Below are positions 8,265 to 30,380 of a stretch of DNA of 64,000 nucleotides, piece after piece. Numbering within the stretch: the first letter of the stretch is position 1; the number at the start of each line of letters is the position of its first letter. A model generated the notes under the pieces. The model was given only the letters and a program-made list of their open reading frames with translations. It was not told the DNA's origin and searched no databases. The DNA is from Dipetalonema caudispina (lineage: Eukaryota > Nematoda > Chromadorea > Rhabditida > Onchocercidae): assembly GCA_013365325.1 (NCBI GenBank), contig JABVXV010000027.1, forward strand, positions 369,499 to 433,498, in the 5' to 3' direction. The position numbers and the translations under genes are program-made.

Positions 8265-11200
8265 GTGTGTCACCTTTTCTTCCCTATGAAATGTTTTTCA
8301 CACATCAAACCTTCCGGAAATGTAAAAAGTTTCTAGGTAGTATATCTGATAGTATCAAAAAGTGAGATTCATGCTTTTATTGATCCTTTAAGCTTCTGCA
8401 GATAAGATGGTTTCAAATTTGAATATTACAGATATTCAATGCCACTGTGCGCATGCTTGCATGTTTGAAGAGGATGAGGAAGGAGTGATAACAGCATCAT
8501 GCTATTGTCATAATGGTTTTAAACTTGCTGATGATAAGAAATCATGTGAACCCATAGAAGATGAGGAAGCTGGCATTGTTCAGGTAACTACTTCCATATT
8601 TTGTTTTAAAAACTTGAAGAATTTTAATTAATGTGAAATTCTAAACATTTAACACGGTATTCTGTAACGAACAACTAAATATTTAATGTTTTTACCAAGA
8701 GTAATTTGATAGTTAAAAGTTTAAATTTATCAGAAATATCTCTTAGAATTGATATAGAGCATTTTGAGACCTTGTATATGACAAATTTATTTGCCGGAAT
8801 CACAGGATAGTAACATCCAATCTTAACATCCTCTCGTTTAGAGGTCATTTAAAATATTCTTTCAAGTTTGTAGATCGATTTCAAATTTGAAGGACTAAAT
8901 ATTTCAGGTTACTCCACCAACATTGATTCCTGAATCCGAGCATCCGAAGGAGCTCTCTACTATGCCAACTCCTTTTGATGGTTTGATACCGAAATCAGAG
9001 AAATTTGATAAGACAGACATTCTGGGACCGGAGGAGCGTGAGAAAGAGTCGAAAACCAAGCCTTCACCAACCGATGAGTTCAGACCAGCCATTTGGCCGG
9101 ATGAACAATTGATAACTACTGATATGAGTAGAGAGTCAGTTGATACTACTATTTCGCCAATGTTAACAGATTTTGGTCAGTCAGACCGTGTTTTGTCACC
9201 AGTCGTGGATTTTGATGGTGCACCTTTGCCTACCAATGAATACGGGCAGGCAGTGGATAATCTCGGAAATCCAGTTGTCTGGGATGATGAAGGCCGGCCA
9301 ATAGGCCCAAATGGTATTCCTTTACGTCGCAATTACAAAGGAGAATACATATATCCAGTTATAGGAAAAAATGGACAACCGTTACCTACTGATATTAACA
9401 TGAAACCAATTTACCATGTTGTTGGACCAGATAATCAGCCTTTCCGGACAAATCAGGAAGGTCTGTATATCGATCGGTACGGCCAAATAATTCCAACAGA
9501 TACCTCCGGGCGCCCAATAAGTGTTGATGGGTCACCTTATCCAACTGATGAACAGGGTCAGTATATTGTTGTGGATTCGGAAACCCCCATTCAACAAGCT
9601 GCACCGACGGATGAACTTGGACGTATTATCTACCCGGTTTTTTATCCAGATGGAACATTACTAGCAACAATGGAAGATGGTCGATTTGTGAACGAACATG
9701 GACAACTCATTCCGACCAATGATGCCGGATTACCGGTTAATGAGAAAGATGAAGTGCTACCAGGAGATTCTGAAGGGAATTTTGTTTATGTAGGCGATTA
9801 TATCCTGCCGACTGATTCCAATGGACATCCTGTGAAGGTGCAATACAATGGAAGACTTCTTAAAAGCGACAAAGTGGGACGCATCATTGGTCCTGATGGA
9901 CAATTAGTGCCGGTAAATAATTATGGACATCCAGTTGACGAATCTAACATTGTACTTCCGACTACTTCTGATGGCATATTTGTACTACCAATAACTGATG
10001 GAAGGAGGGTGACAGTTCCAGCAGCAGAACAAAGAAAGCGAGTGGAACGACCTCTTAATATCATCGGACCTAACGGACACTTGCTACCGACCATGGAAGA
10101 TGGCACTGTTTTAGATCCTTTTGGAAAGACTATACCAACGAATAACATCGGAGAACCAGTAAATTATCGTAATGAACCATTACCAACTAATAGTGAAGGA
10201 CAAGCTATTTATCCGAAAGACGGTTTGGACTGTCCAATTCCTCCAACAGACCAACATGGAAGACCGATTTATTCTGTGGTTGGACCAGATGGCAGATTAC
10301 TTCCTCGAAAACATGACGGAACTGCAATTGATCCGGACGGCAACTCACTTCCAACTAATGCAGCCGGAGTACCTATAGATGGAAAGGGACGGCCTTTACC
10401 CAGTGATAAAAATGGTTCTATCATTTATCCAGCTAGAGGAATCCATAGTGAACCACTTCCAACGGATTCTAACGGAAAACCGGTGTATCCAGTAATCGGT
10501 CATGACGGGAATTTGTTGCCGACGGATAGAAATGGCAGAGTAGTTGATGAGTATGGAAGGCCTCTACCAACAAATGCGGCTGGCGTCCCAGTCGATGAGC
10601 AAGGAGAACCACTGCCATTCGATCAGAATGGTTACATCAGATATCCTGCCCCAGCAGAAAAACAGGGAAGACCTGTATACAACGTCATCGGGACAGATGG
10701 AGAGCCGTTACCACGAAATGAAGATGGATTCGTTATTGGTCCGGATAATAGAGTGGTGCCAACTGATGCTTCTGGATACCCAGTGGATAATCGTGGAAGA
10801 CCTTTGCCTCAAGATCGAAATGGGAACATCATTTATCCTGCCAGTGGTATAGATGTTGAACCAATGCCAACTGACCGAAATGGTAGACCGGTGTATAGGG
10901 TGATTGGGCCAGATGGTCAGCTGCTTCAAAAAGATAGTGATGGTTTTGTAATTGATGAAGATGGGCGACCCATTCCAACGAATGCTGCAGGAGTTCCGCT
11001 TGATCATTATGGAAAACCGCTCTCCGTTGATCGGAATGGTTATGTTTTCTATCCAAAGGAAAGTTACGCATCCGATAGAACCGGTGTACCCGGATACACT
11101 ATTTTGGGACCTGATGGAGTCCCACTACAACAGAATGCTGATGGCGCATTTATAGATCCATATGGCAGACCGATTCCAACAGATTCAAACGGATATCCTA

Positions 11201-14200
11201 TTGATAAGCATGGAAGAAATTTACTGCGGGATCGCATGGGCAATTTCATATATCCAGGAGAAGGCTTGGATAAAGGATTTGCACCAACTGATGCTAGTGG
11301 ACGACCAGCATACTCGGTAATCGGTCCGAATGGTGAAGTGCTACCAAAAGGTTATGATGGAGAGATAATGGATCCCCATGGTAGACCGATTCCCACAAAC
11401 GTTATGGGCATTCCAGTGAACAATCGAGGAGAACCACTACCTAGAGATAACAGCGGAAATATAATCTATCCAGCTGGTGGATTGGATGTTCCATCGCTTC
11501 CTACTGATAGTCATGGAAGACCTATTTATGAAGTTATTGGCTCCGATGGTAAATTTCTACCGACTGGTCCCGATGGAATAGTTTTAGATAACCAGAGAAA
11601 ACCAGTTCCAACAAATGCTGCTGGTGTACCGGTTGACCGATATGGACGGCCATTAAAACAGACCGATACAGGTAAATTTGTATATCCAGAGGATGAAATT
11701 TATGGTCAACTGCTACCAACAGATAAAAGCGGAAGGCAAGTATATCCGGTTATTGGTCCAGACGGAAAGTTATTGCCTCAGAACAGAGATGGTAATGTTG
11801 TTGATCCTTCCGGACGTCCGATTCCTACCAATGAGTACGGTATCCCAGTAGATAATAGGGGACGTCCTTTGCCACGTGACAAAACAGGAGTTGTTATATT
11901 TCCGGCAGGAGGTCTGGATGTCGAGCCTATGCCTACAGACAAAAGTGGAAAACCAGTTTATCCAGTTATTGGACCTGATGGCTATCCATTACCGACAACA
12001 GCGGATCATGACATTATTGGTCCAGATGGAAATATTGTGCCTGTGAATGCTGCTGGTGTGCCAACCAATCACCGAGGTGAACCATTACCAAGAGATAAAC
12101 AAGGCAATTTTATATATCCGGCCACTGGTTTGGATGTTGAATTACCACCTACAGATAAATCTGGAAAAGTTGTATACCCTGTTGTCGACCCACACGGTAA
12201 ACCCTTGCCTACCAATGAAGATGGAGCGCTCGTTGATTTTGATGGATCTCCGATACCAACTAACATAGCCGGCTTGCCTGTTGATGAATATGGTAAACCT
12301 CTATCGGCAGATGCTGAAGGAAATTTTGTTTTCGGTACTCCAAAGAGGCCTACTGATCAAAGGGGCTTACCGATATATCCAATCATTGGACCTAATGGTA
12401 AATTGCTACCAACCGATGAATCAGGCAAAGTGATTGGGCCTGATGGGCATCCAATTCCTGTTGACAATGAAGGCAAACCGATCAACAACCGCGGTGAAAC
12501 GCTGCCTACTGATCGTTCAGGAAATTTCATATATCCTGTCAAAGGTCTCGACGCTGAATTGCTTCCCACTGACAGTAATGGATTACCTATTTATTCGGTT
12601 ATAGACTCTGATGGACATACGTTGCCAACAAATGATAAAGGATTACCGGTCGATGATCAAGGGAAACCTTTGCCGACTAATGCAGCAGGAGTTCCGATTG
12701 ACAATTATGGGAAGCCATTGCCTACTGATTCTAACGGGAATCTCATATATAGGAAAGAAGTTCAAAAGCCTATGTACCCTGTAATTGGACCTGATGGAGA
12801 ACTGCTACCAGCTGACGAGGTTGGTGTTGTCCGTCAACCGATTCCTACGGACAAAACTGGAATCCCAATAGATGATAGTGGTCGACCATTACCAACGGAT
12901 TTCACTGGTAAAGTGATTAGAGTTTGGCCAGATATTGAATCGTTGCCAACCGATTTGAGTGGTCGGCCGGTATATCCAGTACTTGGACCGGACCGAAAAC
13001 CGCTACCGACCAATGAGGATGGAGCCGTTGTTGACAAAAATGGCGTAGTTATACCAACTAATGCTTATGGTATACCCGTTGACGAAAGAGGCGTACCATT
13101 ACCTACAGACGAAAATGGAAACATGATATATCAAAAATCAGCTGCTGAAGCACACCCTACGGATAGGTTGGGTAGACCGATGCATAAGGTGATTGGACCT
13201 GATGGCAATTACCTGCCGCTAGATATCGACGGTGGTGTTTTGGATCCTCAGGGTAAATTGATTCCGACAGACGAAAGCGGAAATCTTGTTGACATGAAGG
13301 GCAAGCCTTTGCCGAAGGATCGCGATGGAAATATAATATACGTAGCAAAAGAATTAGACGTGGAATCATTACCTACAGACCAAAGTGGAAAACCAATCTA
13401 TTCGGTGATGGGACCGGATAACGTACCATTGCCAACAAATGAGGATGGTCGTCCTATCGATGATGAAGGTAAACCGATACCGACAAATGCTGCTGGTGTA
13501 CCGGTTGACCGATATGGACGGCCATTAAAACAGACCGATACAGGTAAATTTGTATATCCAGAGGATGAAATTTATGGTCAACTGCTACCAACAGATAAAA
13601 GCGNNNNNNNNNNNNNNNNNNNNNNNNNNNNNNNNNNNNNNNNNNNNNNNNNNNNNNNNNNNNNNNNNNNNNNNNNNNNNNNNNNNNNNNNNNNNNNNNN
13701 NNNATAGGGGACGTCCTTTGCCACGTGACAAAACAGGAGTTGTTATATTTCCGGCAGGAGGTCTGGATGTCGAGCCTATGCCTACAGACAAAAGTGGAAA
13801 ACCAGTTTATCCAGTTATTGGACCAAACGGAGATTTATTACCAACAACGGAGGATGGTTTGGCCATCGGATTAGATGGCAGCCCACTACCAACGAATGCT
13901 GCCGGGAAACCCCTTGGACCAGATGCATCACCGCTGCCCACTGATGAAGTAGGCCGATTCATATATCTGCCTCCTCAGGAACCGTTTTCGACGTTTGCAA
14001 CGAATGAATACGGTCATATCGTCTATCCGATTGTGGATACGGCTGGTAGACCTTTAGATAAGGATGAAAGTGGAGCATATATCACCAAAAATGGTATCCC
14101 AGTAGAACTTAATGAGAATCATATTCCCCTTGATCCTGATGGTAATATTCTACCAACAGATTCAAGAGATAATTATATTTTTCCTGATCTTGATATTACG

Positions 14201-17200
14201 GGAAGAATACTACCTACGGATTCGACCACTCGAGCATTATATCCAGTAGTTCTTCCAAATGGGCAGCTTCTTGCTACAGATTCAAGTGGTGCCGTCATTG
14301 GGCCAAATGGTGAACCACTGCCGACAAATAATCTCGGAATACCGGTAAGATCAGATGGTAAACCTCTTTCAACAGATGACGAAGGACGCTTTATCTATAG
14401 TGAAGTTCATGGAACTGCTCCAATAACTTATTCTACGAAAAAGGTGATTATCGGTGTTGTTGATAGTGAAGGTAAGCCGTTGCCGACTGATGAACTTGGT
14501 CGATACTTGCTAGCACCGAATTATCCCCTTAAGCAAGACGATGCTGGTAGATTGATTGGACCAGATGGTGAACTACTTCCCACTGACGATTCTGGTAACT
14601 ATGTGTATCGAGATAAAATGAAATACCCGAGTGAAGTAGAAGATGATTTCGGACGTCCATTACCAACTAATGAAGATGGCTTGTATGTTCGAAAGGATGG
14701 TTCGATGATTACAACAGAATTGGCAGACCTGACGACCGATGGACAAGGTGTGATACTGCCTACCGACGAAAGTGGTATTTTCACATTGCCTAAATTTCCG
14801 ATACAAACAAAATCATACCAGATTTTAGATGAGAAAAATCAAATAATGCCAACTGATGATGCTGGTAATTTCTTGGATCGTGAAGGGTATCCAATTGCTG
14901 AAAATGAAGAGGGGAAACCAGTATCTGCAGATGGAGTAGTGTTACCTACCATCGACACAGGTCATTACGTCTTTGACACCACACGACAAAGACCTATGAT
15001 ACCAACTGGAAAAGAAAAATCGATGATAGTAGATACGAAAGGACGGCCTTTACCAACTGATCAAAGTGGCATTCTTATTGGTCCTGACCGTTATCCTGGT
15101 GATGGGATAATGCCAACAGATGAATATGGTAGATACATTTATCCGGCACTAAAGCCAGATGGAAAACCATATCCAACTGACCAAGAACATCGTCCAATTT
15201 ATCCGGTTATTGGATATAATGGCGAACTTTTGCCGACGAACGACGAAGGATTGGCACTTGATCCTGAGGGACATCCGATCCCGACTAATAGTGTTGGACG
15301 ACCACTGGATGAAGACGGTGTTATGTTGCCAATGGATTCCAAAGGAAACGTTCTTTATGACAGCGAGAGAAAGAAGTGTGATACACATACGGGCGTTATG
15401 GATATTGCAGTGGTAATTAACGTGGAGACTCTGAATCGTGATAGTTTCGAGCATGTGAAAAAGGTAATTCAGAATCTAATGGATGAACACTTCGACCTTG
15501 CACCAGATGTGACGCAATTCGCGCTCGTGAAATATAGTGGAACTGCTGAGGTACCAATTACTTTGGGTGGTTACAATGAAAAAATGGAACTTTTGGAAGA
15601 GCTGAGTCGAGTTAAAATTGATCACATCGCAGAGCATCCCAGATTAATTATCGGAGTCAGTGCTGCTAAACAACAGTTCCTATCGTTCGGTCGCGAAAAC
15701 GCTGGCAAGTTGATGATAGTGATAACTGATGGACAAGACATGTAAGTTTGTTTCATCATTATTTCACATTTTGTTCCATATTTTTTCCCAAAAGTCCCTT
15801 AAAATTCTCTTTAAAGAAAGGTCTATTCAAATATATACCTATTTTATATATACATATTTTTTCAATATTTTAGATATTCGGAGGATCGCTTTAAAGACAA
15901 CACTATCCCTATGCTTGTTGTTGGCAGTAGAGAATTTGAGGAAGAAATTAAAGACTGGACTAAATCCTATATCGTGGTAGATTCTTGGAAACAACTGCAA
16001 GCTGATTCTATTGCTATGATGATCGAAAAGGAATGTTTGCTAGGAAGAATTTTCATTCCAACGAAAAAAACATCTCCAAGACCAAAATCTGAAAGATTCG
16101 ATGTTTTTGCCAGTTCACCATTACCAACCGATGAACTTGGTCGTATTGTGGTAGTACCAACTAGTGAACGAATCGTCCTGGCTACCGATGAATACGGTCA
16201 TGTCATATATCCTATAAAAGATGCTACTGGAAGGCTTCTTCCAGTAAATGCAAATGGTTTAGTTGTGGATAGGTTCGGGCGGCTAATTGAATTTGACGAT
16301 TATGGTAAACCAATTGGTCCAGATAGGAGGCCATTGCCAACAGATGAATCTGGAGCTTATATTTATCCTGCTCTTGATAGCGGTGGCAAACTTTTGTTTA
16401 CTGATGGGAAACCATTACCAACTAATCAAGATGGTGTATCCGCGGATATGAATAGACAACCGATTGCCATGAATTTGGCTGGAAGATACAGTGATCATCA
16501 AGGATCGACTTATCCATTTAACAGCGATGACAAGATTATCATGGCAAAAAGGACAAGTAAAATAACAGATACAACCGATTCTACCAAACCCTTTTTGTAT
16601 TCAGTGATCGATCCAGATAATATCCTATTATCAAGGGATGGATCGGAAATTTATGTAAACAATGTTGGACAGGCGGTTGTTGAACGTGATGATAGTGTAA
16701 AACTTCAAGAGCCTGATGAGAAATCGGTGCCCACCGATGATGCAGGAGGATTCATTTACCCAAAATATAATCAAAGTGGTGAACTTCCGCGCAATGATTC
16801 AAATATGAAATTAGTTTATCCAGTAATAAGAGGAGACAGTAAGTTGCTGCCAACTGGCAAAAGTAGCTTACCACTAACGTCAGATGCTTCCCCAGTTGAT
16901 ATAAACTTCGACAGAAGGCCACTTTACAATCTAGATGATGAAGTGCTGTCGCCAGATAAATACAATCGAATGGAGGATTCAGATGGTGAACCACGCGCTA
17001 CTGATAAAACTGGGAACTTTATCAATAGACCGTTACCAATTGAAGTAGATCAAGGTGGTGAACCAGTTGGCGCTAAAATTGAACCAGTGCAGATACCAAA
17101 GGGACAAAAAGCAGTTGTCGTTGACTTGTTCGGCAGACCCTTACCTACTAATAAATATGGCGATTCGATGTATGTAGATGGTAGTGTAATACCAACAGAT

Positions 17201-20200
17201 GCGTCAGGAAAACCCATTGGTCGAGATGGTTCCTTAATGCCGGTTGATTATCGTGGACGATACATATCTGATTACATGCCAGACAGAAATGTTTTACTGG
17301 AATCGGAACTTTTGGCAAAAGCTTCAACATGTGAGAAGGTTGAAGAATTCGTGAACATCATTTTCGTAGTGGAATCTTCGAATGCTACAGAAACGAGTCT
17401 TAATAAAATTAAGCTTTCATTGGTAGATTTTATCAAAAAGAATATTAATTGGGGCATTGCCAAAATCGGTATGATTTCCTACGGAAGTACAGTGGATGTT
17501 AACCTGGATATTGGTAATTACCAGAGTTATGACGATTTGAAAGAATCCATCGTAAGTTTGCCACTCATTGGTGGTGCAGCATCTGGTGATGAACATGCAT
17601 TCAGAACTGCGCTTCAGCTCTTCCGTGAAAAGTACAACAATGACAATGGAGAATTAATCATTCATATCTTTAAAACTCCTCTCAGGTTTTTTTTTTCCTA
17701 AATTATTTGTAAATTTGTTCCTATACTATCATATCCGTTTTTCATGATGTCAGTTGTCAGAATAATCAGCAGAATTAATTCTCAAAATTAAAAAATGATG
17801 GTGCTACTATCATAGCTATCGATGTTGTTATCATGAAGATCATGTTATCATAGCCTATCAGCAACATTAGCATCATCTTCGTTATCAACGGCTATGATTA
17901 GTTGACAAATATATCATTTATTGTGTCTTTTAATTCATTATCACTAAAATATAAAGTAAGTTTTAATTTTTAGCAAAGGTGCTCGAGTAATCGTTAATCA
18001 TTTGGAAGTGAACGAAACTATTTCAATTTTATTACTTGGACCAGATCAATGGTACCGATTGGAGGATGATGAAGAAATCAAGAAATTGCGAAGCGTTATA
18101 TGCTTATTGTTGATGAAAAGTCATCTGGCACAAACTAGGAATCCTAGTGGTTAGCATATCTCAATTAGTTGATCATTAATGCTTCCAGTATTGTATCACC
18201 TATCGAATGTTCTGGCCGAATTTAAGAATCAATAATATTTCCGACCAATGTATTAATTTTAATCATTGACTAGTAGATATTGAACCATAACTTCTTCTTA
18301 CCTTCCTTGATATGGTTATTACGTTCCAATTCAAATTTTTATTACCATTTGTTTCGTCTCGCAACACGCAATTTTTTGAACATTTCTAAGAAATAATTCC
18401 TTGTTAGTCCAGCAAGCAATTCATTTAAATATTCATAATAGAAGAAATAAAAGTGATCGAAGTGATAGCCAATTTTTTTACTTCATCCTCAATCATTTGT
18501 TGTATAACACAACATTTTCATTTAGAAGAAATAAAGGGTAGGATGAAACCTGATTTTTCACGAGATGAAAATGGCCACTTCATGCATTCGATCGTTGGCC
18601 CAGATGGGCGGCTGTTTGTTAAATCGGGCACCAGAACCGATAGTTCTGGTGCCCCGATTTGATTCATTTGGAAGGCTTGTTCTCCATGACAATGATGGCA
18701 TTCCAATCAGTCCAGAAGACAAATCCTTACCGAAAGATGATCAAGATCACTATATATATCCTGTACTTGGAATCGACGGTATTCTATTTGGATGCGAACA
18801 ATCGGCCAATATATCCGGTTAAGAACAGGAACAGCCATCGACAATTCTGGAGAACTGATACCAACAGATAAAAGTGAAAACCGGTTGGACAAAATAATCG
18901 CCGCTCCAACCGACATTAATGGATGGTTGATGTTGGTTGAGAAACAAATAGGGAGAGCATTATCGGTAGCGATGATCATGCAGTTTATCCGACTACTAAT
19001 CTGGATGGAAATCCTCTTCGAACCGATAGTACTGGCACCTACTACGATCATCACGGTAATCCGAAAATACTTGAAAATTCTGGAAAACCACTGAGATCAA
19101 ATGGCAAACTACTGCCAACTGATTACAGCAGTAAATACATATTTGGGATAGTTAATCTGGATGATATGCCGACCAGTGCCGACAGGTTTTTATTACGGAC
19201 TCCAACAGCAAATTCTTGATAGGTCAGACTAAAAAATCTATATCAGCTGATAAATGCGGGCATATCAATTATTCCGAGACCAATGGAAGGTTGCCACCGA
19301 CTGATGACTCTGGGATATTACTAGATCCATTGGGAATGCCTCTACCTACTGATGATACCGGGAAGCCTTTGGGTCCTGATGGTGATGTTTTACCAGCAGA
19401 CAAGTATGTCAGACATTTCTATCCCAATATTGGACAAAACAGAAGAATTATTTCGAGAAAGAAGCTAATAGGATCAATTTATTCCACCAGAGCAACAAGT
19501 AATGTCAAGGACAGTGATTCCGGCTGATAACCAGGGATAACAGCATTCTATCCGGCACATCAGCCAGATAGAATGCTGTTATCAGCAGATGCAACGAAAA
19601 AATTACCGATTACAGCGGTAGATGGTCGATTACTGCTTACCGACAACAATGGAGAGTTCATAGTACCTGATAGGAGGCCAGTATCAATGAATAATTTCAG
19701 ACAACCTGTCGACACCGATGACTCTCAACTACCGACTGATGGAGATGGAATTTTTGTGCTAGGCAAAGAAAAAACCCATTCCATCTCGTTGTTAGTCCAA
19801 AAGACAATTATTAATCAATCCTCACGCCATCTTTATTCACATAGTGAAACCTGCTGCAATTACTGGTACTACCAAAGTTCATCCAGACGGCCAAACGCTA
19901 GCAGCGGGCAACACCAGAAATTTCATTAATCCTTTCATCAAACCAAATGAGAAATTACTTCCGACCGGTGATTTCAGAGATCGTAGTGATATGCTTAGCA
20001 AGCCGGTTTCGACAAATGATGAAGGTTTGTTGATGGATAGAGATGGAGCGACCTAACTATACGGAAGACAATCTATTCATTCAACAGTTCTAGAACCGAT
20101 TTCATCCAAAAAATGAAAGTGAATAACGAATTGATAGTGATAAAAGCATTTTGTTTGCTAAAAGTACTGACCACCACCACATCTATCCAGCAATTGGATC

Positions 20201-23200
20201 AGGTGGATGCCTCTATCATCTATCCGTTGGTATCAGCAGTCCTTCTGGTAGCTATTCGCCATTCTGATTTACTGCAATACATACCGGTCTACTTCAAACC
20301 GGTCAACTTAGATGGTTCTTCCCTTCCAGCCGATGAGTTTGGTAGATATGTGTTTGGCATCACTGACAGAGAAAGGAGTGTGATAGGCATACTATCAACG
20401 GATCAAGTTGGACTTTTTTTGTATTCAGTCATAGGTCCTGATAGCGAACTTTACTGACGAATAGCAAAGCTGCAACAGTTAATCACTTCGGAAGACCGAT
20501 CGTGACCAACAAATTTGGTCTACTGATCGATAACGAAGGTCATATACTGTCAACAGATAGAACCAGTAATTATCTATATTCTGAACTTGATGGTAGCGAA
20601 CGTATACTTTCTTCTCATGTATACGAACAATCAGGTTCTACGGTATTGAGCTCAAGAGGACAAGTTCTGCCGATAAATGTGGTAATGGTTCAAAACATCA
20701 AATTGAAATCAACAAGTTTATCATGGCAGACCTTCCATTTCAAAGGATTTTCTAAAAATGATCTGAGTTGATACAAAATTGAAAAGGAGCAAGTGGCAGT
20801 AAATGAAAATGGTCATGCTATGTATCTACTTCTGAGTTCGGATAGTGAACTTCTTCCAACGGACGGTACTGGAAGGCTTGTTGAAAGATTAGACAAGCCA
20901 ATACCAGCAAATGAAGCAGAAATGCTGATCGATCACTATGAAAGAATCCACAATGACTGATCTATATTCCTGCTTTATTTATTACCAACGGATGGTGGTC
21001 AGTATATTTATCGAACAGCAAGAAATGTCCGGTAGATCTAGTTATTGATACTAAATGAAAAGTTTTACTATTGATCGAAGAGGTGCAGTGTTACGACTTG
21101 ATGTTTTAATGGCCATCTAATTTCCATCGACATTCTGGAATTCCGGTTGATCTAATCAGAAAACCTTTGTCAACTGATAGTTGTAATCGATGTGCTCCAA
21201 ACGTAGATGTGCTTACAGGAGTTGTCTAGACATGCAATCTAATCGGTAATTGGGCTAAAGGTTGAGCGTCCGTCGACGGACAGATCTCGCATCCGATCGA
21301 CCTAATAGGATATCCAGTGCTACGAATAAGCTAATTAACACCGATATAGTAATAAAGATTAGCATTCTCAAGCATTTCTTAGTTATCAACTACATGTTTT
21401 TCAAGTAGTAGAAGTAGAAGATAGTTGATATGAATACTGCAATTGCAGATTCGTATGGTGGACCAGTCCCAACTGATCGATTTGGAAGACCATTAGATTT
21501 CGATGGATCATCTTTACCAACTGATGAACGAGGAATTGTGGGAGTTTTACCGAGCAGCGAAAAAGGTTACATTCTACATTCAATTGTTGGTCCTAGTGAC
21601 AAACACTACAAACAAATCATTATGGTTTCTATTCAGGTTACGACGAGCAACAAATAGAAATAACCAGTAAGGATAAAAAAATTGGTCCAAATGGTAAAGT
21701 GGTATCAATGGACAGTGGGAACCAGTACATTTATCCGACATCTGCTTCACAAAATAGTCATCGGCCAACTGGTAGTCATAAAAAGCTTTCGTATAAAATA
21801 TTTGGTGAAGACGGTAAAATTCTTCCAACAGATGAAACTGGTGCATACATCAATACGGATGGTAAACTAATACCAACCAATTTCTATGGAGAACCATTGA
21901 ATAGCGAGAGAAGTTCAGTTCTTGCAACTGATACTAGTGGACGTTATCATGTTTCGAAGAAAAAACTGACCGATAAACAAATGCCTACTAATATAAATGA
22001 CTATCACTTATATTCAGTAACGGATCCAGATTTAAAAACTATTTCGGATGAATTCGTGTCGACACCTTCTGGTTCTTTGTCCCTCGTGATTTTGTTTCCT
22101 GATGGTCATCCATTATCCGTTGGTGAGAATGGTGTTTACCTTGATGATAATGGGCAGAGTTTAGTTCATATCGATCAAAATGGCCGTCCTGTAATATCAG
22201 CTGATGGAACACCGTTGCAAAAAATTGGTGATGGTAAATATCTTTATCCGTATGAATCCCAAAAGGAAGAAAAAACAATCTTAACTAATGTTGCCGACGA
22301 TGATCATCTATTACGAACAGATCCTGAAGGTCGTCAGGTGCAATTAACTGGCAGAGGTAAATCTGTTGATGGATACAGCAGTTCATCACCAGAGGATAAA
22401 CATGGAAACTATACATGGAATGTGGAAACAACAGCGAGATATCACGCATCAACATTTCCCGGGTTAGAAAGATAACATCATTTGTAGTTTGCGGTTAATT
22501 TGTATTAAATTGAAGCCGTTTTTTATTTAACAAATTTGTCAATTATGAAAGACAGCAGAACTGTAGGTTTTATAGAAATACTGATTGCCTGACAAGAAAT
22601 ATGTGCAACGAATCACTTTTGCTCTAGGTGTGTCATATAAGCATTTACCGATAACAAAATATTTGCACTGTGTTAAAACGAAGTATCGATCGATCACAAA
22701 CTTTGAAAATGAAGTAATCCAAATTTTTTGGCTGCAGAATCAGGACTTGGAGCAGTCCATCACCACATTGTGTGATCAATTCAAATGTTGACATGTTACT
22801 CATCTTGGATTCGTCGAACAGTGTCAGAGTTCTTGATTACCTGATCATGAAGGACTTCATCAAGAATTTTCTGGTCAATTATTTCAATCTACAGCGCAAT
22901 TATGTTCGTGTTGGTGTAATAAAATATGGTGGCAAGGTTGGTCACTCCGGCTTTTAAACATATAAAATATTGAAAAACTTATTTTGGTATTCTTGTATCC
23001 TTTATATATTCTTTTACAAAACACTTGGGCTATGAAAACTGGTCTGAGTGATTCGATTTTCAGGTTGTACAATTTCAGGTCGAAATTCCGATATCATTGG
23101 GTGACTACGATAGTCACACTGAGCTTCTGTCAAAGATTAGTGGGACCAGACGCATGCGTGGTGAGGCTAATCTTGGTCAGGCTTTGCTTGACGCTTCCGG

Positions 23201-26200
23201 AGAATTCCTTATTTTCGGATCCAGGGATATTCCTCGTATCGTGATTATATTTTCAAATGGGCGGTCTAGGTATCAATACGTATCTTGATACTACTCGTAT
23301 AAATCAGTTTTTAAAGATCACAATTTTCGAATCGGGCCATTACTTTTTATTAGTATTACTTTTTGTGGTGTGATTTTCCGATTTTTCAAAAGTCAGGAAA
23401 TTCATTCACATCCAGGTGAAAAAAAAAACCGAATCTAATTTTGGCTAGCCAAAAAAAGCGTAGATCAAATTTATCTGTTATCTAGAAGGACCAAACAAAT
23501 AAAACCGTAAAACCGTCCCTTACGAAAATGCCGTGAAGATTAATTTCAGTGATAGAAAAAACTTATATTTTTCTAATTTCGAACTTAAAGGGGTGACTTG
23601 AAAGAGAATGCTCGTCTGCTACGAGATGATACTACAGCTCATATATTTCTGATGAATGTTGGAAATCAAGGCGACAACGCAGAGAATTTAGCCATTGTTG
23701 GTGAATCGAATCCACATCGAATTGTTACCATTGATGAGTGGCGTGGAGTGAATTCAGAAATTTTGAGTCCGTTTGTGAATGAATTGTGCAAGGTGGGCGA
23801 TCTTTGCAAAAAAAATCCAGTTCAGAATCCTATTTCTCTTTTTTCTGGCTTAAAAAGTACTCGAGTCTGGAAGTGGCTTGATGTCAAAAGATGACGCAGT
23901 TTAGCTTTTTTTTTTTGATTAGAAATTTACGCGTCAAAATATCAGTATTGTTTGTTTACCTTGGAATGCTCCACTGTTTTTGATGATTCATATAAGCAAT
24001 TAATTAATGATAGTTGTTTTTTTGTGCCTTTCAGGTATTTTAATTAGGTTGAATTTCCCAAAGATTAAGATATTGTCGGACGAATACTTGCTGTTAATTA
24101 TCCTTTCAGTTATTGCCACAAAGACAAGATAAAACAAGTAGAGATGGTACATGGCCGACAAGACAAACTGAAATGCGAATTGCAACTCCTGCACGCATTT
24201 GCGATCGAGTTGATTTCCAGGTGAAAACTTTTTTGCCTTTAAATGACATAGTTTGCAAGGGAAAAAAAGTGCTTTATCAGTTGTCTGTCATAGTCTATCC
24301 GTTATTTATTTATATGCATATTTCGTCTTCTTAAAAATGTGAGTTTAAGGCAGATATAATGTTTGTCTTGGATTCTTCCGACAATGTAACATCGGAAGAA
24401 TACATTAACCTTAAAGAAGATATCAGTATGTTGGTTGATGAAATACTCGATTTATCACCAGATGTTGTTCGCGTTGGTCTCGTCGAATACAGGTATTAGA
24501 CTTACAATATAATTCAAGAAGAGAAACAATTTCTTTTCGATCTTTTCAAAAAGGAACATCTCTTCCTTTAGGACCAGTAATTTTTCAGTTTGAATGTTTT
24601 CCCTGCGATGTATGAGAAAGAATTTGTTGAATTTGAAATATACTAATTTTTATCATTTTTATACAAAAAGAATATAACAATTGAATTATAATTCGCGATT
24701 TATGTCTGATTCGCAAATTTAAATTTATGCATCAAATATTTACTTCTAAATTGTTGACATCCAAATCTTGAGAATAGAACGTTTGATAATTTATTTTTTC
24801 GTGGTTCAGATATTTATCTCCTCTTATTGGAATTTGAGGCTTGGCTCTGTGCAATAAGGCACCAATCAGATAGATATGTTTACATTGGTTTGATTTTATT
24901 ATTTCTCATTTTTATTATTTGCAGTGATAAGGCATCAGTTCCTGTACCACTTGGTTATTACGACAATAAATTGCAACTTTTGGCAGATATATCAAACAAT
25001 GAACAGCTCGGTGGTACGCCAATCATTCTAAGAGGTCTTCATGCCGCCAGAGAACAATTTAAACGACACGGTCGAGATGGCGTTTCAAAAATTCTACTTT
25101 TAGTAACAAGTGGTGTTAGTCGGTTCGTGCCTTAATTAATACAGTAGCTGTATCGTAATGAAGCATTAAATCGAAATAATTAATGTTTGCTTGGCATTTG
25201 CTTGGTGCTTTTTTCATTCAAATGATAGTTTCGACATAAATGACGATAACGATTTCAGACAAACTAAATATTATGTGAGAAATTAATTCAATTTTGCTAT
25301 TTATTTGCAGTATTAGTGTCTCATATCTGACGTGGCACTTTTCAATTGTATTTCTTATTGGTGTAAAAACTTTTGCTTAAGACTGCTGATTATACTTTTC
25401 AGTGGTAATGTAGCTTTCGTAGCAGCTGATCTTCGTGAGCGTCTAAACGTAAGTATCTTCGTGCTGGTCGTGAACGCATTTCAAGGAGCTCAAATCATGC
25501 TAAATCGTTTGGCCGGTAATGAATATATTCGACAACGAGTAATATCAATTCCGAGTGCAAGTAAACTACAAGAACCAGAACTGTTACAAATTGGACGAGC
25601 GCTCTGTGGCAGTATTGACGTGGCTGCTGCTACTATTTGGCCACCGCAGGAAACTCCACATCGAACTACGAAACGTGATGTTTCTTACGCTGAATCAAAA
25701 CGCAAGTGAGTTTTACTGAGCAGAACATTTTCATTTATCTCAATGCAAGTTAGTGTGATAACGGATTTATTAAGCTATAGTATTGGCATTGATAACAATT
25801 TTAATAGGCTAATTTGTAATTCGTTTAAGGCTTAGTTTGGTTTTGTCGTTTTATTTGTCATTCAATTCATTTAATTTAAACTTTGTTGATTAGGAAAGAT
25901 AAAATATCTCGTTTGCCATTGCGCAACTGGAAAACAACGACGGAACATTTCGCTCCTGTACCACTTTGCAAGGATGGTTTCTTACGTCCATATCAACTTT
26001 CGATCGTTGTTGACAGTACCGCCAGATCGCCTGAGGAAGTAAGGCAGTTCCGTTTTAAAATACTATGGATTTTTATGGTTGATTACTTCCGGAAGCTCTT
26101 CATATTTCATTGTTTCTGTTTTTGTCTTCCTTCTTGTCCTCTTGTATTCCAAGTATGCATCATGTATGGTACATGAAAATGAAAACGGTCTTTCAGGATT

Positions 26201-29200
26201 TCCGCCTAGTACTGAATCATGTTGCCAACTTCTTGAAAACGCGGTTTTCACCAGAAAGCAGACTTCTGCAATTGAATTTGGTAGGCGTTGATAGCAATGG
26301 TACCAATTTGAAGGCAGCAAATTTCGGCGTTGATACGGTGGATGAAATTTTCGCCAAACTGATACAAAAAAAGCGAGTTTTATCAAAAAAGCTTCAAATT
26401 CTTACAAAAAGAAAGCCTTAAAAACTAGATGAAACTTTTACGTGAAATGACATCCCAACTGATTAATTGCTTGACGCAAATTTTTTACTACTTTTACAAC
26501 TTGGTCAATATGCCCTTTCTGCCAGCAATCCAAATAAAATTTTGTAGAAGCGATGAAATTTCTCCTAAACTAGGCCGAGGTATTGAAGAAGCAATGTTGT
26601 TGGCTAAAGAACATGCTGTGAAAGGAGTGATTCAAATAATTTTAATCATTAGTGCAGACGGGACAAGCAGGTAGTATAGACTTTTTTGTTGCACTATTCA
26701 TTTAGACTCGTACGAAAATACGAAAGATTAATTGATGATTCCTTTCTTTCCACTTTTCATTCTAGTGATGATGCGATACAATCAGCGGAATATGCAAGAG
26801 ATCAATATGGACATGGCGTTGTTGCAATTTCGATAAAAGCTCCGTCTAGTGAACTTTTGAAGGAATTATCATTGGGAAGTTCTACCAAGTTAGTTTTGCA
26901 CTTTCCTCCCAATTTAAATCAATTTCGGTCTTTTATTTGTTATTTACGAACCAATATTTCAGCTTGTAATTAAAAAAAAATTACTGGTCCATTATATTGT
27001 TATGTAAACTAAAAATTTGGAAATATTAATTGAAAGTATTAAATCAATTATTCAAAGTATGAATGGTTCGCATTAAATTATTCTGAGATTCTGACAACAA
27101 ACGAAAAAAAAAATTAAATTTGCAGAGTAATTCACTTCCCAGATTGGTTGGTTGAAACTGGATTATTTCAAAGCTGGATCGCTCATGCTTTTTGCAGTTA
27201 TGTTTCTACACCAATAACAAGGAAAGCTAAATTGACGCGCATGACTCCACCACCAATTCGAACGACTTGTATTAATTAGAATTTAATACTACTAATTAGC
27301 TGCTGAAATGATTTAACTGCTAAAAGTTTGCTGATGACAACAGTCATCCTATTTCTTCGCATCCTATCGATATGGATAGCTTTAGCAATGTTTTATACAA
27401 TTTTATTCCAACAAAACTCGAAGCAGTGAAGAATTATGTTTTGATCTATTTCAAATTTATATATTTCGATTTTTTTTACCGAAGAGTAAGTAAATGAAAG
27501 TAAACTTTTTGAATATTACAATCATCTTTTATAGCAAAAATATCAACAAATCAAGCAACCAACGTTAAAGTAACACCGGTGAATCCAAATTCGCTACTAG
27601 TCTCATGGACTTGTTGTACGGATAATAAAGCAGTCAGTTTCCATTAAATAATATTAAATACTAATATTAGGTTTTTTGATAACAATTAGTTAATGTAATT
27701 AATGTAGGCCCTTACGACATACTCTTAATGTAACGAATGAGTTGGAAATTACCTACTGACACCTATCATATTTTCGAAAATTTAAAAGTCTCAATTTATT
27801 TAATTAAATTTTAGCCACAAGACGCTGTAGTGCGGAAGTTTAAATCCTTCTCGACTTCTGATATAAATTGTTTTATTGAGACGGGAGGAACTTTTAATTA
27901 CCAAAAACTTGGATTTTGTGCTATTTAGGATTACATCATTTCCTACACTCCGGATTTATTATTGCCGAAAGAGTATTGGAAAAAAGTGAATGCAACTTGC
28001 CGCGACAGTTTTGGAAGAAAAATTGATGGCTTACCATCCGACAACACTTATACTGTTTGTGTTGAGACATTGCAGCGATCCGCTAACAAATCCGCTCCAC
28101 TTAATCTGAACGATTGTGCAACTGTAGAACTTGACAGTGGTGAATTATTTTATTTCGAAATTAAATAGCAGTCAAACGAGACACTACCAAATTTTACTAA
28201 AGCTATTTCCATTCCGTTGGAGATCGATCTTATAGCTGAATTATTCCAAAAAGAAATGTTCATTTGATTTAGTTTTAATTGGTAAATTTGAGATACTACG
28301 GCACTACCAGATCAAAAACTATCGGATAGCCAGTCGATATCACAATGTCAATGTATATGTGCAAATAACGGAGAAGCTTTGATAAAACCGACATGCGAAA
28401 CACTGATGGATCCCTTCCGTCCAATCGCTACTCTTCCACCAGCTGTAGATGGTGAATGTCCCTGTAGTATGCCTTCGAAAGGTGGACGATGTCCCAGTGG
28501 ATACTTCCATAATCGTGGACAATGCTATGGTTAGCCAGTTTTCTCGAGCAAAGTCATTTTCTTACAGTCAACAAAATTGTTAAGATTTTGATGCCTGTTA
28601 TTCTTTAAGGTGATATTAAATATCGATATGCTGTCTATTTTGATGTATAGTATGAAAACTTAATTTTAAGACATAAATGAATGTCAGCAACAAAATGGCG
28701 GTTGTTCACATGGTTGCGTGAATATTCCCGGAGACTTTTACTGTGCATGTCCACATGGCATGATGCGTGACCCAGCGAATCCGAAAATTTGTATCAATGT
28801 TGCGGGTAGTTTCGATCGAATCGCAGCACTGTTGGGTCAGTATCTCTACTCAAATCGTTATAATGCAAATGCTACCGGTGCTGCAAAAACTGTAACGCAA
28901 AGTGATGACAAAATAGTGAGATACAAGGTTAGTGATTGCTTGCTCTTGAACTTTATAGAATTTTAGATGCAACAAATTTATGCTTTAAAATTTTTAGATT
29001 TCTTTAGACTCGTGAATTCAATGTTTTCATTTGCATTTTTCCGGAGTGGAAACACAAGTAACTGCCAAAAAATACTCAGTTTACGCATCCTCTTAATTAA
29101 ACTTACAAGAGAAGTCCTCTGTAGATAAGTTTAATAGAAAACTGAGCGATAAAACTTATTTAAATACAAATTGAGAGATAATTTCTGAAAAATCAGAGTT

Positions 29201-30380
29201 CAAAAAAAATATAATCTTACTTGATTGCTAGTGTGTGTCAAAATACCACTTATAAATTACGCAACATTGCAAAGAACTTTGACATTAATCAAGATAGTAC
29301 AAGATGGGAAAATTTTAAAAGAAACACAAGAACGATTGATCTCGTTCGTTAAGATTGGTCGTGCTTTGAATAGTAATGAGAATAAAGTTACGTTGAATCC
29401 GACTGTTCTATCTCGAATTTGTTATGACACCGGAAAAAACCCGTACTAAATGCCGTGAAAGTTTTTTTTTTTTGTAGTAGGAGAGAATCTGTATTATTAA
29501 CGAAGAGATACAGTCCTTTTGATTGTGTATCACAACAAGTAATTAAATCTAGAATTTATTAAACACAGCAATTAAGCAGATGTTATAATATGATTTCGAT
29601 AGCGTAGTACATTAAGGAAGGCGGTTTGGCATGGGAGTCACTGAACTGACTAGTAGTTGGAAGCTCCAAGAAGAAAAACCACAAGAGGTAGGAGTGAGTG
29701 GTAGCTTTGTACGTGCGTAAGGTGTATGAGTCTCAATAGGGCCATGACCTTTGTATATATATATATATATATATATGTATAGTGGGAGTGGTCTACAGAA
29801 GCACTGTTGTACCGTGCCGTGCCATAAGCATGGATGACAAAGGACATTGTAGTACAATCCTAGCCTAAGCATATAAAATAAAAGACACGGTATTGCAATC
29901 CAATTCGATTTAAGCATATCTTAACCACAGAGAACAAAGATGCATTGTTTTGATATCTCATCTTTGATAAGGATGAGTGTAAGCTAAATGATTTATGTTA
30001 ACAATTTATCAGATGAATTATTTCATTACAAAATGAAGCATCAATTGCTTTAATTATAAGGAATGTGTTATTCCTTTCTTTTGTGAAACAAATTCGAATT
30101 TCACGACACGAAATGGTTACTTTTGATTGAAGAAATAAGTAACATTTTTCTCGAAGTATGGTTATCAGTTGATAACGCATCTTTATCTTTCCATTTATTG
30201 ACTTTTTATTTATTTATTTTTTTCCATTTGATAATCTCCACTACAACATTTTTTGAACAACCAAATTCTGATTTCGGATTATTTCAGGCAACAGTGAAGT
30301 CAGAAGATGATAAAACGATCTCATTTGAATGGTCATTAATGCCAGCAGTTATACGGAGGGCATTCAAATGGCTATTTTGA
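1..30380 (+). CDS. dig-1: Giant extracellular matrix protein, mesocentin/DIG-1-like (5' end outside window)
   Basis: Spliced gene, open at the left edge, ending at a TGA at 30378-30380. Domain order read from phase-matched exons: three Ig-FN3-FN3 modules, EGF, PTDxxG repeats, VWA1, repeats, VWA2, a broken repeat exon, VWA3-5, FN3, Cys-rich, Ca-binding EGF, short C-terminal exon. About 4000 residues are encoded before the broken exon and about 980 after it. This Ig/FN3/VWA/EGF mix with a long repeat core fits C. elegans DIG-1 (mesocentin), a secreted basement-membrane-associated protein needed to hold the gonad and nerve bundles in place; that role is family knowledge, not visible here. No transmembrane segment is evident in the C-terminal exons. 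As assembled, the exon at 18526-22462 would stop translation early. The orthology call rests on architecture and could be a paralogue. Confidence 0.72.
5456..5513. repeat. Long perfect-loop hairpin in an intron
   Basis: Two 28-base arms (5456-5483 and 5486-5513) are reverse complements at 26 of 28 positions, separated by two bases (AA). The hairpin lies in the intron between exons 5156-5316 and 5584-5753. No coding content. Confidence 0.85.
8402..8583 (+). other. EGF-like module exon
   Basis: The exon enters in phase 1 and leaves in phase 0. It carries closely spaced cysteines (CHCAHAC near the start, then CYCHNGF and a final C before EPIEDEE), a short EGF-like module with an acidic tail. 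It separates the Ig/FN3 array from the repeat exon. The spacing is unusual for a standard six-Cys EGF, so the fold is a moderate-confidence call. Confidence 0.65.
11611..11975 (+). repeat. Source copy of an identical internal duplication
   Basis: Bases 11611-11731 are identical to 13483-13603, and 11855-11975 are identical to 13704-13824, on the two sides of the assembly gap. Other repeat units in this exon differ at many codons, so exact identity over 242 compared bases marks a recent duplication, gene conversion or an assembly artefact. Confidence 0.85.
13604..13703. other. Assembly gap, 100 N
   Basis: Exactly 100 Ns, the usual placeholder length, inside the repeat exon. The reading frame is phase 0 before and phase 1 after it as written. 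The matching interval in the identical copy (11732-11854) is 123 bases, and 123 would restore one continuous frame. The true missing length is unknown and could include further repeat units. Confidence 0.97.
15376..16050 (+). other. VWA domain 1 (degenerate MIDAS)
   Basis: Runs from KCDTHTG, at the end of the repeat exon, across the intron 15742-15873 into exon 15874-17685, ending near KECLLG. The strand/helix order of a von Willebrand A domain is clear ([30 protein letters not shown]). The metal site that should read DxSxS reads N-V-E-T-L here, so metal-dependent ligand binding is unlikely. Flanking cysteines (Cys in KCD and in KECL) probably pair, as in matrilin-type VWA domains. Confidence 0.8.
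16100..17300 (+). repeat. Repeat block II, divergent PTDxxG repeats
   Basis: Same exon as the end of VWA1 and start of VWA2. It contains the same motif type as block I ([33 protein letters not shown]) but more diverged, with several units that have lost the PTD core. The frame is fully open. It acts as a spacer of about 400 residues between VWA1 and VWA2. Confidence 0.8.
17326..18149 (+). other. VWA domain 2 (degenerate MIDAS)
   Basis: Exons 15874-17685 (end) and 17974-18149, with phase 2 at the inner junction. Core strands NIIFVVESS and [11 protein letters not shown], and LIIHIFK before the intron, match a VWA fold. The metal-site motif reads ESSNA instead of DxSxS. If the phase-1 donor at 18149/18150 were not used, the frame would stop at TAG 18151-18153, which would be a natural end for a shorter product. 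Confidence 0.72.
18621..18660. repeat. Quasi-palindrome at the first frameshift of the decayed exon
   Basis: Arms 18621-18637 and 18643-18660 are reverse complements apart from one extra G, with a five-base loop. The TGA that closes the first frame (18660-18662) sits at its edge, and repeat peptides continue in another frame just after it. Confidence 0.85.
19536..19583. repeat. Perfect 17-bp inverted repeat at another frameshift
   Basis: Arms 19536-19552 and 19567-19583 are perfect reverse complements, with a 14-base loop. It follows directly after the stop at 19525-19527 in the decayed repeat exon. Confidence 0.88.
22738..23792 (+). other. VWA domain 3 (intact MIDAS)
   Basis: Exons 22738-22936, 23079-23263 and 23591-23792, all phase-consistent. 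The domain starts with a Cys ([12 protein letters not shown]) and ends with a Cys (NELCK). The metal site reads DSSNS, a complete DxSxS, and the later Thr/Gly region is present. This is the only one of the five VWA domains with a full first MIDAS motif, so it is the best candidate for metal-dependent ligand binding. Confidence 0.82.
24110..25705 (+). other. VWA domain 4 with linkers
   Basis: Exons 24110-24220 (linker with a Cys), 24350-24492, 24925-25122 and 25403-25705. Core [29 protein letters not shown] and SIFVLVVN follow the VWA pattern, ending near RALCGS. The metal motif is DSSDN, one position off the consensus. The last exon adds a basic linker ([19 protein letters not shown]) that could be a protease site by its dibasic residues; that is inference. 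Confidence 0.8.
25894..27268 (+). other. VWA domain 5 (one phase conflict)
   Basis: Exons 25894-26038, 26197-26376, 26548-26670, 26766-26888 and 27126-27268. The core starts [20 protein letters not shown] and ends AHAFCS; the metal motif reads DSTAR, degenerate. All junctions agree in phase except 26376 to 26548: the upstream exon ends in phase 0 while the downstream one needs two carried bases. One base fewer in the A run at about 26366-26372 would resolve it. After the domain comes a short Pro/Thr linker (MTPPPIRTT). Confidence 0.7.
27535..28139 (+). other. C-terminal FN3 domain
   Basis: Exons 27535-27632 and 27929-28139, phase 1 at both outer borders. It shows the FN3 pattern: [16 protein letters not shown], then YIISYTP, and [12 protein letters not shown] in place of LxPxTxY. 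It carries extra cysteines (WTCC, TCRD, VCVE, DCAT) not seen in the upstream FN3 domains. Confidence 0.78.
28293..28927 (+). other. Cys-rich segment and calcium-binding EGF module
   Basis: Exon 28293-28529 is Cys-rich ([29 protein letters not shown]). Exon 28671-28927 opens with [18 protein letters not shown], the calcium-binding EGF signature, then FYCACPHG. Then follows a linker ending IVRYK. Phases match (1 and 1 in, 0 out). The final coding exon, 30288-30380, continues in phase 0 with [15 protein letters not shown] and a basic/hydrophobic end. Confidence 0.85.
28928..30287 (+). other. Long last intron of the matrix gene
   Basis: A 1360-base intron between the cbEGF exon and the terminal exon. 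It holds a TA run at 29754-29776, an AATAAA at about 29877 and one 74-codon frame (29225-29449) with no similarity that I recognise. That frame may be chance or an alternative terminal exon. Confidence 0.6.
29754..29776. repeat. TA dinucleotide microsatellite
   Basis: About 11 uninterrupted TA units inside the last intron of the matrix gene. Confidence 0.95.

What the first reader, a model, noticed from the sequence alone, without database searches (positions are those of the whole stretch)
18526..22462. A 3.9-kb repeat exon is wrecked while its splice borders and the exons on both sides stay intact
Seen: repeat peptides in all three frames with more than ten frameshifts or stops, bounded by an acceptor and a donor whose phases fit VWA2 (phase 1) and VWA3 (phase 2). 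Downstream exons are open with normal splice sites. Skipping the exon would not help, because the phases of VWA2 and VWA3 do not match each other. If real, about 980 residues (VWA3-5, FN3, EGF) cannot come from the same reading frame, yet look conserved. Options: consensus error limited to this exon, gene split with a new downstream promoter or trans-splice site, or very recent decay.
Basis: partly seen in the sequence, partly recalled or inferred. Interest (0 to 1): 0.8.

Follow-up and report, generated by a model that had tools for sequence, protein, structure and literature searches.

The report
Repeat exon turned into an intron
In a filarial worm's giant matrix-protein gene (dig-1), most of one long repeat exon has decayed, but the gene is probably not broken: a splice site further in lets the cell skip the damaged part, and two Brugia species have protein models that lack the same piece.

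Summary
The gene is the filarial orthologue of C. elegans dig-1 (mesocentin). Aligned to the Elaeophora elaphi orthologue, 18528-21187 needs 20 frameshifts and 4 stops, while two neighbouring repeat/VWA exons need none. But the damage does not reach 22462: the last kilobase is open. The VWA2 donor (18149|18150, phase 1) can join an internal phase-1 acceptor, 21448|21449. A 71-bp phase-1 intron (21566-21636) then leads into the open exon 21637-22462, which ends in the phase-2 donor that VWA3 needs. Of 13,009 open one- or two-intron models, this one aligns best to both B. malayi and B. pahangi DIG-1, whose models lack the same segment. By splice-site strength alone it ranks 7 of 12,992 two-intron models. 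Most likely about 2.9 kb of repeat exon has become intron (intronization) and one continuous DIG-1 is still made. That is a known kind of event in a large new instance. Splicing was not observed: no RNA data were available. A relative-rate comparison shows no clear acceleration in this lineage; the exon evolves fast in the other filariae compared.

The parts
17974..18149 (+). second VWA2 exon; donor 18149|18150 (GTG|GTTAGC), phase 1
   Evidence: all 5 orthologues tested give the 17974 acceptor; donor score 6.5, at or above 15 of 31 reference donors
18526..21448 (+). decayed former repeat exon, now most likely part of an intron 18150-21448; the old acceptor 18525|18526 is still present
   Evidence: 20 frameshifts and 4 stops against P0001 over 18528-21187; 51-63 stops in each of the three frames; absent from the Brugia protein models
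21449..21565 (+). small exon, phase 1 in and phase 1 out, reading [17 protein letters not shown]...; acceptor CTGCAATTGCAG|AT
   Evidence: 26 of 40 columns identical to B. malayi, counted from the alignment; acceptor score 4.5, at or above 8 of 31 reference acceptors
21566..21636 (+). 71-bp phase-1 intron, AAG|GTTACA ... GTTTCTATTCAG|GT; its sequence still looks repeat-derived
   Evidence: picked by local spliced alignment with 2 of 5 orthologues, P0001 and P0002, while P0010 locally preferred 21586/21648 by one point; best for both Brugia in the full enumeration; donor rank 9 of 207, acceptor rank 2 of 246
21637..22462 (+). retained open part of the repeat exon; donor 22462|22463, phase 2
   Evidence: frame open 21600-22475; 60% identity to E. 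elaphi with 0 frameshifts and 0 stops over 21618-22394
22738..22936 (+). first VWA3 exon
   Evidence: VWA match to the frame 22718-22957, E 9e-6; junction from P0002 and P0010
23079..30380 (+). downstream exons to the gene's end (VWA, EGF, last codons ending in a stop at 30380)
   Evidence: 787 joined codons without a stop for 22739-28139 and 28671-30380; whether an exon at 28292-28534 is included was not settled
8908..15742 (+). intact repeat exon(s) upstream, with a 100-N assembly gap at 13604-13703, ending in VWA1

Best explanation
The gene is a working dig-1 (mesocentin) orthologue. Its long third repeat exon has been shortened from its 5' end by a change of splice acceptor. The old acceptor at 18526 leads into a decayed frame. 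The transcript is instead spliced from the VWA2 donor (18150) to the phase-1 acceptor 21449, then across a small intron (21566-21636) into the intact exon 21637-22462, and on to VWA3. A shorter form, 18150 straight to 21637, is also in frame. Because every junction involved is phase 1, leaving the upstream part out kept the frame, so that part was free to collect frameshifts, stops and small inversions. Shown: the open frame, the phases, the site strengths, the match to the Brugia proteins, and the restriction of damage to the skipped part. Inferred: that these sites are used in RNA, and the order in which skipping and decay happened.
For: Of 13,009 open models with one or two introns between the VWA2 donor and 22462, the same one (21449, 21566, 21637) aligns best to B. 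malayi (1432, next 1424) and to B. pahangi (1459, next 1453); the six best for each of these two all use 21449, and with B. pahangi 218 residues align without a gap across the junction NPS|DSYGG vs KPS|DSDGG. Independently of orthologues, its splice-site score ranks 7 of 12,992 two-intron models, with 21637 second of 246 acceptor sites. Damage is confined: 24 disruptions in the skipped part, none over 21618-22394. The B. malayi and B. pahangi proteins carry 337-340 residues between VWA2 and VWA3 landmarks and the window model 348, against 1206 in E. elaphi and 1363-1500 in two ascarids. GC is 0.403 in the decayed part against 0.296 in 20 introns, so it still resembles exon. Downstream exons are conserved at 74-80% identity in the filarial proteins aligned. 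B. malayi dig-1 peptides and N-glycosites have been detected (tables seen as passages in PMC6742230 and PMC10187950).
Against: No RNA evidence. With A. viteae and E. elaphi as guides, the best models keep pieces of the decayed exon (18526-18642 or 19223-19513), although both still enter through 21637. Seventeen single acceptors give an open frame, so an open path alone is weak evidence. Acceptor 21449 is only 17th of 246 and scores slightly below the old acceptor 18526, which is 12th. The edges of the 71-bp intron win by only 6-8 alignment points. The Brugia structures are gene models and may have been built around broken sequence too. No clear rate acceleration is seen in the decayed part for this lineage. 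One frameshift was scored when 21637-22462 alone was aligned to E. elaphi, though the window frame is open there.
Confidence: 0.8

Rival explanations
1. The gene is truly cut: the 3' part is expressed alone from a new promoter or a trans-splice site, or is decaying.
For: In D. immitis the annotation is split in two: P0011, whose listed Pfam domains include no VWA, and P0024, which starts inside this exon; both lie on a contig of the same length, 12,535,412.
Against: An in-frame splice path exists and matches two Brugia species across the junction. The D. immitis split may be an annotation artefact: its second model reads on through part of the exon that is decayed here.
Confidence: 0.1
2. Assembly or consensus error confined to this exon.
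For: The gene is repetitive, and the assembly has a gap inside a repeat exon at 13604-13703.
Against: 20 frameshifts in 2.7 kb and none in the control exons tested. Identity to E. elaphi is 51% against 60-72% elsewhere, with 52 inserted codons and 75 missing residues. The decayed part has 10 homopolymer runs of 5 or more in 2,923 bp against 7 in 1,014 bp of the open part. Gap flanks that are exact 121-base copies of earlier sequence suggest a short-read assembly (inference). Brugia proteins lack the same part.
Confidence: 0.04
3. The old exon is still partly used, as small exons between mini-introns or as a regulated poison exon whose inclusion sends the transcript to decay.
For: The old acceptor 18526 survives with an ordinary score of 5.2. 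The A. viteae and E. elaphi alignments favour models with a piece of it.
Against: Keeping most of it would mean avoiding 24 disruptions; neither Brugia model keeps any of it.
Confidence: 0.06

Closest known systems
Intronization of exonic sequence (Irimia et al. 2008, known here only from its reference entry; described for Caenorhabditis and Cryptococcus in passages of PMC2740785, and reviewed in PMC3488318)
   Same: Former coding sequence becomes spliced out by existing or newly used splice sites, and the frame downstream is kept.
   Different: PMC2740785 describes conversion of an internal portion of an exon; here the 5' part of an exon, next to an existing intron, is absorbed. About 2.9 kb of a repeat exon is involved and it is visibly decaying. 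The 71-bp intron nearer the 3' side is closer to the classical case.
C. elegans DIG-1 / mesocentin, 13,084 residues (passages of PMC8544517)
   Same: Ig and FN3 domains first, a large poorly conserved middle, VWA and EGF domains at the end; the window matches B. malayi DIG-1 collinearly over its whole span.
   Different: The filarial versions held are much shorter (about 6,000-6,500 residues in the complete models), and here a whole block of the repeat middle is dropped.

Membership tests
DIG-1 / mesocentin orthologue | collinear match to annotated DIG-1 proteins through Ig/FN3, repeats, VWA and EGF | tested here: met
   tblastn of P0002 (BM_BM10822, B. malayi): collinear exons from 176 to 30377; VWA, EGF
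DIG-1 / mesocentin orthologue | Ig and FN3 domains in the window itself by profile search | not tested
   the upstream exons were not scanned; orthologues carry PF07679 and PF00041 in precomputed lists
Intronization | the sequence is coding in relatives or the ancestor | tested here: met
   E. elaphi, O. ochengi, O. flexuosa, D. immitis and A. viteae models, and ascarids, encode repeats there; gene models only
Intronization | removal by canonical splice sites leaves one open frame | tested here: met
Intronization | the sequence is actually spliced out of mRNA | not testable with these tools
   no RNA reads; only the Brugia protein models speak to it
Pseudogene / truncated gene | no transcript can encode the downstream conserved domains in one frame | tested here: not met
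   an open spliced frame from VWA2 through VWA3 is printed; downstream blocks are open

The most novel reading that the evidence does not exclude
This repeat exon of DIG-1 is being eaten away repeatedly across the filariae. As phase-1 acceptors inside the repeats take over, the coding part shrinks stepwise (about 1360-1500 residues between landmarks in ascarids, 1206 in E. elaphi, about 800 in Onchocerca, 526 in A. viteae, about 340 in Brugia and 348 here). A repeat array with a constant phase would then act as a one-way ratchet turning exon into intron without ever breaking the frame.
Probability: 0.3. Interest if true: 0.55.

Novelty: new member of a known kind. Interest (0 to 1): 0.38.

Why it matters
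It shows how a gene can look broken in a frame-by-frame reading and still be whole. It gives a case, caught before the remains have faded, of a long coding exon passing into an intron; such transitional cases help to date intronization and to see its order of steps. It also warns that automated gene models of filarial DIG-1, which appears in published proteome and antigen lists, are unreliable around this exon.

Tried and rejected
Second copy of the exon in the same genome: none found beyond this locus. DNA search gave only the exon itself and two inverted self-matches; protein search gave 34 matches, all at this gene. Both score best candidates only, so counts are lower bounds.

Rate acceleration as proof of lost constraint: not shown. 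In the decayed part, changes unique to the window, E. elaphi and a third species were 85/75/88 (O. ochengi), 76/37/106 (A. viteae), 48/30/65 (D. immitis) and 83/78/79 (O. flexuosa). The control exon with VWA1 gave 68/53/57 (O. ochengi), 81/52/36 (A. viteae), 54/64/50 (B. malayi) and 67/55/51 (O. flexuosa); the VWA2 control gave 24/42/44, 32/39/35, 36/86/91 and 29/42/64 for the same four. Three rows of that call were dropped because the third protein lacks the homologous stretch and matches other repeats: B. malayi in the decayed part (99/54/251), D. immitis in the two controls (33/14/251 and 25/13/191).

Disruption density: with 24 disruptions taken over 2,923 bp, 7.7 would be expected in 943 retained bases, Poisson P of none 0.0004. 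This is only a rough guide: the boundary was chosen after the fact and the alignment reaches only 21187.

Species: not identified. The tree joins the window to Brugia with support 46 only, and two partial trees leave it unplaced. Assembly sizes quoted for Mansonella (76-80 Mb in passages of PMC10145164) are similar to the 78 Mb here, which proves nothing.

In print: searches listed no paper on decay or intronization of this exon; only listings and passages were seen.

Splice reference set: 31 introns were hand-picked from 54 rows; 12 rows in 18150-22744 and 11 doubtful rows were left out.

Full report
What the gene is. The window lies in an unnamed 78-Mb assembly. Its first 30 kb match DIG-1/mesocentin proteins of filarial nematodes collinearly. 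A protein search returned 21 relatives, among them B. malayi BM10822 (P0002), E. elaphi (P0001), O. ochengi (P0005), A. viteae (P0007) and B. pahangi (P0010); nine of the 21 were aligned to the window. Two further searches added C. johnstoni, O. flexuosa and a second D. immitis model. In C. elegans DIG-1 is a giant matrix protein with Ig and FN3 domains, a large poorly conserved middle, and VWA and EGF domains (passages of PMC8544517). Bma-dig-1 is Bm10822, 6469 residues in the listed isoform (passages of PMC10187950 and PMC6742230).

What is broken. The E. elaphi protein carries repeat sequence between its VWA2 and VWA3 domains; landmarks on either side are 1206 residues apart. Aligned to 18526-21448 with frameshifts allowed, it matches 816 codons at 51% identity over 18528-21187, with 20 frameshifts and 4 stops. 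Control stretches 13706-15742 and 15861-17685 match at 72% and 68% with none. The damage is real and well beyond what the controls show.

What is not broken. The frame 21600-22475 is open for 291 codons. It matches E. elaphi at 60% with no frameshift or stop over 21618-22394. When 21637-22462 alone was aligned to a slightly different E. elaphi piece, one frameshift was scored; the window frame is open there, so I read that as an alignment effect. The downstream exons joined from 22739 to 28139 give 787 codons without a stop, with sites inferred by spliced alignment and one GC-AG intron at 26373. Identity to filarial orthologues over that part is 74-80% for the records that match it. Upstream I checked 467 joined codons of 4371-8583, also open, not every upstream exon.

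How the frame is kept. The VWA2 exon ends in phase 1 at 18149. The acceptors 21449 and 21637 both accept phase 1. From 21637 the frame is open to 22462 in phase 2, as VWA3 requires. From 21449 a 117-base exon ends at a donor, 21566, in phase 1 again. A weight matrix built from 31 introns of this gene, the region in question left out, gives 8.6 for acceptor 21637 (second of 248 AG sites listed), 4.5 for 21449, 5.2 for the old acceptor 18526, and 6.5 for donor 21566. I then listed every open model with one or two introns between the VWA2 donor and 22462: 13,009 of them. The best match to B. malayi and to B. pahangi is the same model, acceptor 21449 plus intron 21566-21636; the six best for each all use 21449. 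With A. viteae and E. elaphi, whose own models keep more of the exon, the best window models keep a piece of the decayed part, but also enter through 21637. Ranked by splice-site score alone the Brugia-like model is 7th of 12,992 two-intron models. Seventeen single acceptors would also give an open frame, so openness by itself is not the argument; agreement with two Brugia proteins is.

Interpretation. The decayed stretch is most likely intron now. Brugia lacks it in the protein in the same way, and the small exon begins at the same residue (NPS|DSYGG here, KPS|DSDGG in Brugia). The stretch still has the base composition of exon (GC 0.403, against 0.296 in 20 introns of the gene), so it has not been intron for long, or drifts slowly. 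Two inverted repeats with arms of 17-21 and 12 bases sit inside it. Among eight regions of the window scanned, the only other two hairpins of that size are AT-rich. Such local inversions fit template-switch mutation in unconstrained DNA (inference).

What does not fit neatly. Relative to E. elaphi and a third filaria, the window has no clear excess of amino-acid changes in the decayed part over the controls. E. elaphi and O. ochengi are only 48% identical there, against 76% and 64% in the two controls, and 43% in the retained part. So this exon evolves fast in species that seem to keep it, and the alignment, being fitted to E. elaphi, may hide changes. The D. immitis annotation is split at this exon and the C. 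johnstoni model lacks VWA2, which suggests trouble at this exon in other filariae or in their gene models. Lengths between the VWA2 and VWA3 landmarks, available for 10 of 24 records, are 1500 (Parascaris), 1363 (Ascaris), 1206 (E. elaphi), 808 and 802 (O. flexuosa, O. ochengi), 526 (A. viteae), 340 (B. pahangi) and 337 (three B. malayi records); the window model has 348. This is the ground for the bolder reading of stepwise erosion; it rests on gene models.

Known or new. Intronization is described, including in Caenorhabditis (passages of PMC2740785 and PMC3488318; Irimia et al. 2008 seen only as a reference). This is a further, unusually large case, with the skipped exon still readable. Confidence that the gene keeps one frame by splicing around the damage: 0.8.

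Noticed in passing
13604-13703: 100-N gap inside a repeat exon; the 121 bases on each side are exact copies of 11611-11731 and 11855-11975, as expected at contig ends of a short-read (de Bruijn) assembly, so the repeat count there is uncertain (the cause is inference).
   Followed up: partly
19536-19583 and 18626-18654: Two near-perfect inverted repeats inside the decayed exon that seem to overwrite repeat coding sequence; possible template-switch mutations.
   Followed up: partly
26373-26547: An intron in the fifth VWA-like block appears to use a GC donor (GC-AG), from alignment to B. malayi; E. elaphi and B. pahangi prefer other edges.
   Followed up: no
28292-28534: A cysteine-rich open stretch is part of the B. 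malayi protein but missing from the E. elaphi model; it may be an optional exon.
   Followed up: no
37167-44044: Next gene on the same strand: DUF3591 and bromodomain matches, which I take from memory to mean a TAF1 orthologue.
   Followed up: no
P0011, P0024 (D. immitis) and P0022 (C. johnstoni): Public models are split or skip VWA2 around the same exon, a sign of trouble there in other filariae or of model error.
   Followed up: partly
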